This document shows, in pieces, positions 47,685-50,183 of a stretch of 64,000 nt of DNA (positions are counted from its first letter, which is position 1; every line of letters starts with the position of its first letter). This stretch comes from Halorussus marinus (GTDB lineage Archaea > Halobacteriota > Halobacteria > Halobacteriales > Haladaptataceae), in contig NZ_SBIV01000008.1 of NCBI RefSeq assembly GCF_004765795.1, positions 124,001 to 188,000 of the forward strand. Direction: 5' to 3'. The notes beneath the pieces were generated by a model. The model did not search any database, was not told where the DNA came from, and worked only from the letters and a program-made list of their open reading frames with translations. A program made the translations under genes and the position numbers.

Positions 47685-47849
47685 GGCCGGATGATCTAAG
47701 TACTACGTTAAGACTTTTGTGGGTTAGAGAGGTTCGGCGCTGAACGTTTCTGGGTCGGTCGACGATCCCGGAGTTCGGGGAACGGGCGTTCGATTCGGGG
47801 CGGGCTTTCGACCCGACCCCGAGCGATCGACGCCGACGCCGAGCCGAGA

Positions 47850-49160
47850 TTACCAGTTGTAGAGGGCGTCGGTGAAGATCTCCTCGGCGTCTTCTTTCGT
47901 CACCGGTCGGGGGTTGCACCGAAGCAGACGCTTTTGGGTCTCGACGGTCTGGTCGGCGAGCCAGCCCACGTCCTCCTCGGTGATGCCCGCCAGCTCGTTG
48001 AGACCGCTCGGCAGGACGTTGAGGTCTCGCTGTAACCGGACGTACTCCTCTTTCGCGCGGTCGGCGGCCTCGCGCGTGCTCACGCCGTCGGTCTCGGCGC
48101 CCAGCATCTCCGCGATCCGCGCGAAGCGTTCTGGGTCGCTCGCGGCGTTGTACCCGAGCGTGCTCGCGGGGGTGAGCGCGGCGATCGTCTCGCCGTGGTA
48201 GGTGTGGTACTTGTTTCCGACCGGATACGCCATCGCGTGACAGAGGCTCGCGCCGGCGGTCAGTCCGGCGATGGCGCCGAACAGCGCCCCCTTCAGCATC
48301 TTCGAGCGGGCCTCCAGATCGTCGCCGTTGTTGACGACCCGCCGGACGTTGTTCGACAGCAGTCGGATCGCCCGTTCGCTGAACGCCTCGGTGAAGTCGG
48401 TCCGGCCGGCGTACACCGGTCGTTCGGCCGGGTCAGACGGCCGGAGCAGGTCGTCGTAGCGGTGGGTCGTGTACCCCTCGATGGCGTGGCCGAGCGCGTC
48501 CATCGCGGTCTTGGCGGTCACGTCGGCGGGCAGAGTCGTCGTGAGCGTCGGGTCGAGCACCGCGGCGTCGGCCCGGACGTGGTGGCTCGAAATGGCCTCC
48601 TTGATGTCTTTGTCCTCGACCGAGAGGATGGCGACCGGCGAGATTTCGGCCCCGGTGCCCGCGGTCGTCGGCATCAACACGAGCGGCGGCCCCGACTCGG
48701 TCAGGTCCTCGCCGCGGCCGGTGGGCTCGGCGACGTAGTCGAGGATCTCACCGCCGTTGGCGGTGACCGCCCGGGTCGTCTTCGCGATGTCGATACAGCT
48801 CCCGCCGCCGAGCCCGACGTAGAAGTCGTAGCCGTCCTCGCCGCGCTCGTCGCGGACGAACGAGATGCACGACTCGACGGTCTCGATCGAGGGCTCGCGT
48901 TCGGCGCCGTCCCAGACGTCGACGCCGAACCCGGCGGCCTCGAGCTGGTCGGTGACCCGATCGGCGTGACCGAGGTCGACGAGCGTCTGGTCGGTCACCA
49001 CCAGTCCGGCGGCGCCCTCGGCCGCGCCGAGGTCCCCGAGCTGAAATCCGAGCTCTTCGACGGCGTTCGCGCCGAACCTGATCTCGGGCATCTGGATGTG
49101 CCAGACAGTCTCGGAGCCGAGTTCGTGGGCCGACGCCGAGACCGAGCGGTCGTAGCTCAC
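47850..49160 (-). CDS. Iron-containing alcohol dehydrogenase
   Basis: A 436-residue group III alcohol dehydrogenase binding NAD(P) and a divalent iron. The family motifs are visible: YVGLGGGSCIDIAKTTRAV (dinucleotide binding), MPTTAGTGAEISPVA, DALGHAIEGY and GLTAGASLCHAMAYPVG with metal histidines. The GTG start at 49160 overlaps the lactonase stop by 4 bp; an alternative ATG lies at MPEIRFGANAV, but the overlap makes translational coupling likely. Such enzymes include 4-hydroxybutyrate dehydrogenase. Together with the upstream lactonase this suggests lactone use, for example gamma-butyrolactone to 4-hydroxybutyrate to succinic semialdehyde (inference). Confidence 0.88.
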   Translation of the reverse strand: MSYDRSVSASAHELGSETVWHIQMPEIRFGANAVEELGFQLGDLGAAEGAAGLVVTDQTLVDLGHADRVTDQLEAAGFGVDVWDGAEREPSIETVESCISFVRDERGEDGYDFYVGLGGGSCIDIAKTTRAVTANGGEILDYVAEPTGRGEDLTESGPPLVLMPTTAGTGAEISPVAILSVEDKDIKEAISSHHVRADAAVLDPTLTTTLPADVTAKTAMDALGHAIEGYTTHRYDDLLRPSDPAERPVYAGRTDFTEAFSERAIRLLSNNVRRVVNNGDDLEARSKMLKGALFGAIAGLTAGASLCHAMAYPVGNKYHTYHGETIAALTPASTLGYNAASDPERFARIAEMLGAETDGVSTREAADRAKEEYVRLQRDLNVLPSGLNELAGITEEDVGWLADQTVETQKRLLRCNPRPVTKEDAEEIFTDALYNW

Positions 49161-49963
49161 TGGCCCCACCCCGAGCGGATCGCCTCGAACTGGTCGGGGT
49201 CGTGGCCGTACACCACCTCGGCGTCGTGGGTCCGCTGGAGGTCCTTGATGCGCTGGAGGCTCTCGAACCAGTCGCGTTTCGCCCAGGTCAGCGGGCCGCC
49301 GAGGGGCTGTTCGTCCTCGTAGTTCTCCGACTGGTACACCTCGTCGCCGGTGAAGATGACCGTCCCGTCGCCGTCGAGGTGGATCACGGTTCCGGTCAGC
49401 CCCGGGGTGTGGCCCGGGAACCGGACGAACTCCACGTCCTCGAAGTGCTTTTCTCGGTCGCGGTGGAGGACCCGCCAGTTGAGGTCCCGATCGAAGTCCT
49501 CGAGGACGTACGCGTCGCTTCCCTTCGAGGTCTTTGCGCTGTAGTACGCGAACTTGAGCTCTTCTTCGTGGACGAAGATCGGCACGTCCGTCCCCTCGAA
49601 GAACTCCAGTCCGCCCGCGTGGTCGAGGTGGAGGTGGGTCTGGAACACGTAGTCGATGTCGTCGAGCGCGTACCCCGCGGCCTCGAGGTCGTCGTCCAGC
49701 CGGTGGTCCCGGACGTCGTGGGGGTAGAACGCCTGGAGGAGCCCCTCGGGCCAGTAGCCGTCGAGCGCCTCGTGGTGCGAGCCGGTGTCCCAGAGGATCG
49801 TCCCCTCGGGGTGGTCGATCACGAGGCTCCACACCGGAATCTCGACGTAGTCGGTGTCGGGGTTCGGCGCGTCGTGGGAGCCGATGGTGTTCGCCTCGAC
49901 GAGGTAGTTGAGGTCGCACTTGAGTCCGCCGCGGTCGAGCACGTCGACGGTTGCCTGAACCAT
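49157..49963 (-). CDS. MBL-fold lactonase, N-acyl homoserine lactonase family
   Basis: A 268-residue metallo-beta-lactamase-fold hydrolase with the lactonase motif HLHLDH (residues 110-115), GHTPGLTGTVIHL and a late YGHDPDQFE. Similarity is to AiiA/AttM-type enzymes that open acyl-homoserine lactones or small lactones such as gamma-butyrolactone. It is the first gene of a unit with an iron alcohol dehydrogenase and has a clear TATA-like box. As quorum-signal lactones are not a well-established archaeal trait, a small-lactone substrate is as likely as quorum quenching. The ATG at 49963 is well supported. Confidence 0.85.
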   Translation of the reverse strand: MVQATVDVLDRGGLKCDLNYLVEANTIGSHDAPNPDTDYVEIPVWSLVIDHPEGTILWDTGSHHEALDGYWPEGLLQAFYPHDVRDHRLDDDLEAAGYALDDIDYVFQTHLHLDHAGGLEFFEGTDVPIFVHEEELKFAYYSAKTSKGSDAYVLEDFDRDLNWRVLHRDREKHFEDVEFVRFPGHTPGLTGTVIHLDGDGTVIFTGDEVYQSENYEDEQPLGGPLTWAKRDWFESLQRIKDLQRTHDAEVVYGHDPDQFEAIRSGWGQ

Positions 49964-49990
49964 GTTGCGAACGGTACGTCGGATGTCAGT

Positions 49991-50000
49991 ATCATAAACT
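49991..50000 (-). promoter_or_regulatory. TATA box of the lactonase-ADH unit
   Basis: AGTTTATGAT on the minus strand, 28-37 nt before the ATG at 49963. A GTTAACTTAT string on the plus strand at 50011-50020 could serve a divergent transcript. Confidence 0.55.
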
Positions 50001-50183
50001 TTCTGTGCGTGTTAACTTATCCGGGTGCGAATACGTACGCTGGAAACCGATCCCGGGATGCGTTCGGACGATGGAGCGCGAAACGAAAAGTCGGATTCAA
50101 AAGGCCCGACGACGTACCCGGGGGTATGGGCACCGTGGGTGCGCCAACCGAGGTGAAGGGCCGGCGCGGCTGAGGTCGTCGGC

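What the first reader, a model, noticed from the sequence alone, without database searches (positions are those of the whole stretch)
47850..49963. Lactonase and iron alcohol dehydrogenase in one translationally coupled unit
The MBL lactonase (HLHLDH) and iron ADH overlap by 4 bp. A lactonase followed by a hydroxyacid dehydrogenase matches the logic of bacterial gamma-butyrolactone utilisation (attKLM/blcABC, which adds an aldehyde dehydrogenase). In an archaeon this could be lactone catabolism, not quorum quenching. I do not recall it described in haloarchaea.
Basis: inference. Interest (0 to 1): 0.52.

Follow-up and report, generated by a model that had tools for sequence, protein, structure and literature searches.

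The report
Archaeal lactone-degrading gene pair
A salt-loving archaeon carries a transferable two-gene unit, a ring-opening lactonase overlapping the gene of an enzyme that resembles the animal GHB-oxidising transhydrogenase, which looks like a pathway for eating gamma-butyrolactone-type compounds and suggests a testable job for an enzyme whose role in microbes was reported as unknown.

Summary
In detail: an AhlS/GcL-type metallo-beta-lactamase-fold lactonase (49157-49963, minus) overlaps by 4 bp an iron-type alcohol dehydrogenase (47850-49160, minus). In a sample of 392 Halobacteriales genomes, 58 of 62 lactonase orthologues lie within 8 bp upstream of the dehydrogenase orthologue, in seven families and many unrelated surroundings. 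In the window's genus the pair sits in a spot that is empty in 12 of 17 congeners, so it behaves as a transferable cassette. The dehydrogenase is not of the Agrobacterium BlcB type. It resembles hydroxyacid-oxoacid transhydrogenase (HOT), with one of HOT's two diagnostic insertions. In 3 of 58 loci, including Halobacterium hubeiense, a succinate-semialdehyde dehydrogenase follows directly: lactonase-HOT-SSADH. Best reading: catabolism of gamma-butyrolactone-like lactones through a 4-hydroxy acid and its semialdehyde, analogous to blcABC but differently assembled. The substrate, and whether electrons go to 2-oxoglutarate or to NAD, are inferred, not shown. My full-text searches found no description of it. 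New variant of a known kind.

The parts
49157..49963 (-). MBL-fold lactonase, 268 aa, first gene of the unit
   Evidence: Pfam PF00753 1.6e-25; NCBIfam best model AhlS NF047976, 162.5 bits, below its cut-off of 475; best PDB relatives AaL 6cgy and GcL 6n9q; metal ligands and active-site Tyr aligned with Planococcus, Deinococcus and Agrobacterium lactonases; model's top fold matches are GcL and AiiA.
47850..49160 (-). HOT-like iron alcohol dehydrogenase, 436 aa, GTG start overlapping the lactonase stop by 4 bp
   Evidence: Pfam Fe-ADH; orthologues are named hydroxyacid-oxoacid transhydrogenase in RefSeq-derived records; first HOT insertion present, second absent.
49157..49160 (-). GTGA overlap of stop and start codons
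   Evidence: sequence read directly
49990..49998 (-). TATA-like AT-rich stretch (TTTATGATA on the minus strand) about 27-35 bases upstream of the lactonase ATG; putative promoter with a short leader
   Evidence: sequence read directly; function inferred
47723..50089 (.). approximate extent of the inserted DNA relative to the empty site of congener G066
   Evidence: blastn homology to locus L176 ends at window 47722 and resumes at 50090

Best explanation
A transferable catabolic cassette. Step 1 (fold and catalytic residues shown, activity inferred): the di-metal MBL lactonase hydrolyses a small gamma-lactone such as gamma-butyrolactone inside the cell to its 4-hydroxy acid. Step 2 (family shown, activity inferred): the HOT-like iron-dependent dehydrogenase oxidises the 4-hydroxy acid to the semialdehyde, either by handing the hydride to 2-oxoglutarate (giving D-2-hydroxyglutarate) or to free NAD. 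Step 3 (gene linkage shown in 3 of 58 loci, activity inferred): a succinate-semialdehyde dehydrogenase, linked in some genomes and elsewhere in the window's genome, makes succinate for the citric acid cycle. The overlap is expected to keep the two enzymes co-produced. It is lactone feeding or detoxification rather than quorum quenching.
For: Tight, conserved order lactonase-ADH in 58 of 62 cases and seven families. Lactonase-HOT-SSADH in consecutive same-strand order in Halobacterium hubeiense pSTJ001 (4 bp overlap, then 20 bp) and in G183 and G375. Own genome has a 70% identical SSADH at C5:191603-192958; such an SSADH (E <= 1e-120) is in 51 of 58 pair genomes against 200 of 334 others, Fisher p 2e-5, not corrected for kinship. 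Bacterial parallels: blcABC = SSADH, Fe-ADH, AttM lactonase; Planococcus lenghuensis lactonase, Fe-ADH, ALDH; Deinococcus wulumuqiensis pDrdI HOT plus AttM-type lactonase 15 bp apart. HOTs of Mycobacterium dioxanotrophicus, Rhodococcus pseudokoreensis and Peribacillus lie near SSADH genes. Mammalian HOT oxidises gamma-hydroxybutyrate to succinic semialdehyde with reduction of 2-oxoglutarate (PMC5125639 section 14). Three YdiJ-like FAD/Fe-S proteins in the own genome could recycle D-2-hydroxyglutarate. Haloferax mediterranei fed gamma-butyrolactone incorporates 4-hydroxybutyrate into its polymer (PMC3880725, passages), so at least one haloarchaeon takes it up and opens it.
Against: No substrate has been tested. 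Only 3 of 58 loci carry the SSADH; in the window there is none within the stretch examined. The lactonase is closest to enzymes studied as AHL lactonases. The second HOT insertion is missing, so the transhydrogenase step is less secure than the hydroxyacid oxidation. AMP-forming acyl-CoA ligases lie within 5 kb in 9 of 58 loci and TctA-type permeases in 14 of 58, which could mean a longer or different acid. No regulator like BlcR was found beside the window's pair. 13 of 72 ADH orthologues stand without an intact adjacent lactonase for reasons other than a broken pair.
Confidence: 0.62

Rival explanations
1. Quorum quenching: the lactonase destroys AHL-type signals of neighbours or of other haloarchaea, and the ADH is incidental or processes a by-product.
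For: Closest named families and solved relatives are AHL lactonases. AHL-like activity has been reported for haloarchaea including Natronococcus occultus (PMC10223598, passages), whose plasmid 2 carries the pair.
Against: The partner is a hydroxyacid-type dehydrogenase in 58 of 62 cases and SSADH in three; opened AHLs are not natural substrates of that chain. The BlcC precedent is catabolic, and its operon answers to GBL, GHB and SSA, not to AHLs (PMC5924552, passages). PMC10223598 itself reports failing to detect lactone bonds in the bioactive extract.
Confidence: 0.12
2. Catabolism of a different or longer hydroxy-acid lactone (for example gamma-valerolactone, delta-lactones or gamma-lactones of fatty acids), with the product activated by an acyl-CoA ligase.
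For: AMP-forming ligases within 5 kb in 9 of 58 loci (families); a short-chain fatty acid transporter (TIGR00366) beside the pair in N. occultus and in one other locus. Rhodococcus qsd pairs a lactonase with a fatty acyl-CoA ligase (PMC6262395, passages).
Against: Where a third gene follows directly it is an SSADH homologue. The ligases are of several sub-types, on either strand, and neighbours are otherwise not conserved.
Confidence: 0.18
3. The ADH is an ordinary NAD-dependent 4-hydroxybutyrate dehydrogenase, not a transhydrogenase; the unit is simply a haloarchaeal equivalent of blcBC.
For: Second HOT insertion absent; NAD-binding GGGSxxD motif in 70 of 71 orthologues; BlcB does the same job without either insertion.
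Against: First HOT insertion present, and the tree places it on the same side as bacterial HOTs, with modest support 94/85 and midpoint root. GGGS motifs are also present in the HOTs with both insertions, so the motif does not decide.
Confidence: 0.45

Closest known systems
blcABC (attKLM) operon of Agrobacterium, gamma-butyrolactone utilisation
   Same: MBL lactonase + iron-type alcohol dehydrogenase + SSADH in one unit; same proposed chemistry.
   Different: Order is SSADH-ADH-lactonase there, lactonase-ADH(-SSADH) here; the ADH here has the HOT insertion that BlcB lacks; lactonases 29% identical; no BlcR-like regulator seen; SSADH mostly unlinked.
Hydroxyacid-oxoacid transhydrogenase (HOT, ADHFE1, cd08190)
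   Same: Iron-ADH fold family, NAD-binding and metal motifs, first of the two HOT-specific insertions; database name of orthologues.
   Different: 13-residue second insertion absent; about 34-36% identical to bacterial HOTs that have both.
Planococcus lenghuensis plasmid cluster: AhlS-like lactonase, Fe-ADH, ALDH
   Same: Same gene order and nearest lactonase type outside archaea with such neighbours.
   Different: The Fe-ADH has neither HOT insertion; ALDH always in place in that one example.
Deinococcus wulumuqiensis pDrdI: HOT + AttM-type lactonase
   Same: HOT gene adjacent to an MBL lactonase, TctABC genes nearby.
   Different: HOT comes first and has both insertions; lactonase is BlcC-like; two other Deinococcus HOTs have no lactonase beside them.
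GcL / AaL / AhlS quorum-quenching lactonases
   Same: About 30% identity over the full length, same fold and ligands.
   Different: Below the AhlS family cut-off (162.5 of 475 bits); gene context is catabolic.

Membership tests
blcABC operon | MBL lactonase with HxHxDH and further metal ligands | tested here: met
   62 of 62 orthologues have HxHxDH
blcABC operon | BlcB-type iron ADH in the same unit | tested here: not met
   ADH present but with the HOT-type insertion that BlcB lacks; 32% identical to BlcB
blcABC operon | SSADH gene in the operon | tested here: not met
   not in the window's unit; met in 3 of 58 related loci
blcABC operon | adjacent IclR-type repressor BlcR | tested here: not met
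   8 neighbouring window proteins have other Pfam families or none
blcABC operon | growth on gamma-butyrolactone | not testable with these tools
   needs cultures
HOT subfamily cd08190 | 19-residue insertion between helices 5 and 6 | tested here: met
   18-19 residues relative to BlcB, Planococcus Fe-ADH and solved methanol dehydrogenases; definition from PMC5125639 section 14
HOT subfamily cd08190 | 13-residue insertion between helices 8 and 9 | tested here: not met
   absent in window, N. occultus and Natrinema proteins; present in Deinococcus, Mycobacterium and Rhodococcus HOTs
HOT subfamily cd08190 | NAD-binding and metal-binding motifs | tested here: met
   GGGSxxD and DALxHAxE each in 70 of 71 orthologues
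HOT subfamily cd08190 | grouping with known HOTs in a tree | tested here: inconclusive
   same side as bacterial HOTs, support 94/85, long branches, midpoint root, no animal HOT included
HOT subfamily cd08190 | transhydrogenase activity with tightly bound cofactor | not testable with these tools
   needs purified enzyme
AhlS-family AHL lactonase (NF047976) | score above the curated cut-off | tested here: not met
   162.5 bits, cut-off 475
AHL lactonase fold group | MBL lactonase fold and full-length similarity to solved members | tested here: met
   phmmer to AaL 6.3e-39; Foldseek GcL 1e-19 with a model of mean pLDDT 69.5

The most novel reading that the evidence does not exclude
Haloarchaea carry a mobile lactone-catabolic cassette whose oxidation step is a transhydrogenase: the 4-hydroxy acid is oxidised by passing its hydride to 2-oxoglutarate, with no free NAD, making D-2-hydroxyglutarate as an obligatory by-product that YdiJ-type dehydrogenases re-oxidise into the respiratory chain. 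This would be the first role for HOT-like enzymes in prokaryotes and a redox-distinct alternative to the blc pathway.
Probability: 0.33. Interest if true: 0.66.

Novelty: new variant of a known kind. Interest (0 to 1): 0.5.

Why it matters
Lactonases of this fold are usually discussed as quorum quenchers. A conserved, transferable archaeal unit that ties one to hydroxyacid oxidation and, in some genomes, to SSADH argues for feeding on lactones. [quoted passage not shown] Haloferax mediterranei is already fed gamma-butyrolactone to make 4-hydroxybutyrate polymers, so knowing which haloarchaea burn 4-hydroxybutyrate has a practical side.

Tried and rejected
BlcB identity of the ADH: rejected by the insertion test. 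Full HOT membership: not claimed, second insertion missing. A conserved third gene: looked for by gene calling and clustering around 53 loci (one, L071, gave no anchor by the gene caller although tblastn found its lactonase) and by marker search in 76 loci; none is general. TctA upstream in 14 of 58 pair loci sits in what looks like a conserved chromosomal stretch of one family, so I do not count it as part of the unit. Conserved operator: upstream regions of 62 orthologues were printed; all start with ATG and many have AT-rich TATA-like stretches, no shared palindrome was evident by eye; no motif statistics were run. AlphaFold of the ADH gave mean pLDDT 59.9 and was not used. Sequence co-divergence of the two proteins (Mantel r 0.83, 0 of 2000 permutations) fits joint inheritance but vertical descent alone would also give it. 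Gene-family names from NCBIfam for the ADH were uninformative (all far below cut-offs). Control for lactonase paralogues: only 13 listed paralogues below 430 bits were entered in the adjacency script and none paired with the ADH orthologue; the remaining listed paralogues were not entered.

Full report
What is there. On the minus strand an MBL-fold protein of 268 aa (49157-49963) is followed by an iron-ADH-family protein of 436 aa (47850-49160); stop and start codons share GTGA. The lactonase carries HLHLDH, GHT, GDxxY and GHD segments that align with solved GcL/AaL lactonases and with Planococcus, Deinococcus and Agrobacterium lactonases. Its best NCBIfam model is AhlS, well under the cut-off. 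A model from 13 sequences (mean pLDDT 69.5) has GcL, AiiA and AaL as top fold matches. The labels for the active-site residues are recalled from the AiiA and GcL literature; their alignment is from the calls.

Where it is. The genome (G000) belongs to the same genus as G136, whose ADH coordinates coincide with those of the Halorussus limi plasmid record CP096661; so Halorussus is inferred. Neighbours are housekeeping or unrelated: NIF3, SBDS and FUN14 on one side; DUF2209, a GTPase of HflX type (name recalled) and others on the other. In 12 of 17 congeners FUN14 and DUF2209 are next to each other with no pair between; in four there are other stretches of roughly 1.2 to 3.2 kb between them and one contig ends inside. 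Against G066 the homology breaks at 47722 and resumes at 50090, so about 2.37 kb stand in place of about 310 bp. None of the 17 other genus members in the order sample has a lactonase match at 1e-30; two of them, G097 and G130, have the ADH orthologue without a lactonase. The pair is thus a likely recent acquisition.

How conserved the unit is. Of 392 Halobacteriales genomes, 62 have a lactonase orthologue (at least 66% identity) and 72 an ADH orthologue (71 at least 66%, plus one fragmentary); 58 genomes have them side by side in the same order, spacing -4 to +8 bp: -4 in 11, -1 in 19, 0 in 9, positive in 19. The 58 fall in seven families (family labels, tallied from the table). The four lactonases without ADH are in G175, G010, G069, G390. 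Of 14 ADHs without an intact adjacent lactonase, one (G152) is a broken pair and one (G302) keeps a deleted remnant of the lactonase just upstream. Outside the 392, Halococcus dombrowskii has the lactonase alone beside an L-lactate permease. Surroundings differ widely.

What the ADH is. RefSeq-derived annotation calls orthologues hydroxyacid-oxoacid transhydrogenase. [quoted passage not shown] In a ten-sequence alignment the window protein has the first insertion but not the second; Deinococcus, Mycobacterium and Rhodococcus HOTs have both; Agrobacterium BlcB and the Planococcus Fe-ADH have neither; a second haloarchaeal group (Natrinema salinisoli) has only the first, and a Peribacillus protein has a shorter first one. 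In a 28-row tree the paired ADHs form one clade (100/100), as do the bacterial HOTs (100/100); these and the second haloarchaeal group are separated from BlcB and the rest with 94/85 support, midpoint root, with long branches. I therefore call it HOT-like.

Why lactone catabolism. In Halobacterium hubeiense plasmid pSTJ001 the order is lactonase, HOT (4 bp overlap), NAD-dependent succinate-semialdehyde dehydrogenase (20 bp on). Two further genomes of another family (G183, G375) have an 86-88% identical SSADH in the same place; these are 3 of 58. The G095 and G183 ADHs are sisters in the tree (100/99) although the genomes belong to different families, which suggests transfer of the three-gene form. 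The window's genome has a 70% identical SSADH at C5:191603-192958. Genomes with the pair have such an SSADH more often (51 of 58 against 200 of 334; p 2e-5 without correction for kinship). The best NCBIfam model of the linked SSADH is an NADP-dependent succinic semialdehyde dehydrogenase at 603.7 of 730 bits, so its substrate is likely rather than proven. In bacteria the same logic was assembled at least in three ways: blcABC, Planococcus lactonase-FeADH-ALDH and Deinococcus HOT-AttM. HOT genes also stand near SSADH genes on Mycobacterium dioxanotrophicus, Rhodococcus pseudokoreensis and Peribacillus plasmids, and beside a FAD/Fe-S protein, whose best model is D-2-hydroxyglutarate dehydrogenase YdiJ (442 of 1350 bits), on the M. 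dioxanotrophicus plasmid; a protein of the same description follows HOT in Rhodococcus ruber YYL. G000 has three full-length relatives of the former, 32-35% identical. That the two actinobacteria grow on cyclic ethers is recalled; the listing did not settle it.

Against quorum quenching as the main role. BlcC cleaves both gamma-butyrolactone and AHLs, yet its operon responds to GBL, GHB and SSA and not to AHLs (PMC5924552, passages). The haloarchaeal lactonase is genetically tied to a hydroxyacid dehydrogenase. Natronococcus occultus, the organism of an early report of AHL-like signals (cited in PMC10223598, passages), has the pair on plasmid 2 next to a TIGR00366 transporter-family gene (that this family carries short-chain fatty acids is recalled). 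Side activity on AHLs is quite possible.

What is shown and what is inferred. Shown: sequences, families, adjacency, transfer signature, linked SSADH in three loci. Inferred: all enzyme activities, substrate size, electron acceptor, translational coupling, promoter. Novelty: searches for lactonase with haloarchaea, 4-hydroxybutyrate/HOT/butyrolactone/archaea, homoserine lactonase with HOT (no paper) and butyrolactone/haloarchaea/semialdehyde dehydrogenase (four papers whose titles and abstract starts are on polymers) gave no description; only open-licence papers are held, and of most hits I saw the listing only.

Noticed in passing
L127:1886-7696 (Halobacterium hubeiense pSTJ001): AMP-binding protein, then lactonase, HOT and SSADH: the complete three-gene form of the unit.
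   Followed up: yes
window 47685-50183 and L175-L190: The FUN14-DUF2209 intergenic spot is variable in the genus: empty in 12 of 17 congeners, other stretches of about 1.2 to 3.2 kb in four.
   Followed up: partly
L068:6094-9085: In G078 an Amidohydro_2 family protein, a family that includes other lactonases (recalled), lies upstream of the HOT-like ADH where the MBL lactonase would be, with a 121-aa ORF between; possible non-orthologous replacement.
   Followed up: no
L096:3172-5804 and L104:3196-5804: A lactonase paralogue (about 60% identical) in Natrinema thermotolerans and Halorientalis marina stands without an ADH and divergent to an AMP-binding ligase.
   Followed up: no
L101, L121, L122: A second haloarchaeal HOT-like group (about 44% identical) with only the first HOT insertion shown for L101, not linked to lactonases.
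   Followed up: partly
L057:5956-6168: G302 keeps an intact HOT-like ADH behind a lactonase remnant that has lost its middle.
   Followed up: partly
L100 and L118: Actinobacterial plasmids carry HOT next to a large FAD/Fe-S protein, as expected if D-2-hydroxyglutarate must be recycled.
   Followed up: partly
L094:3146-7120: Natronococcus occultus plasmid 2: TIGR00366 family gene, lactonase, HOT in a row.
   Followed up: no
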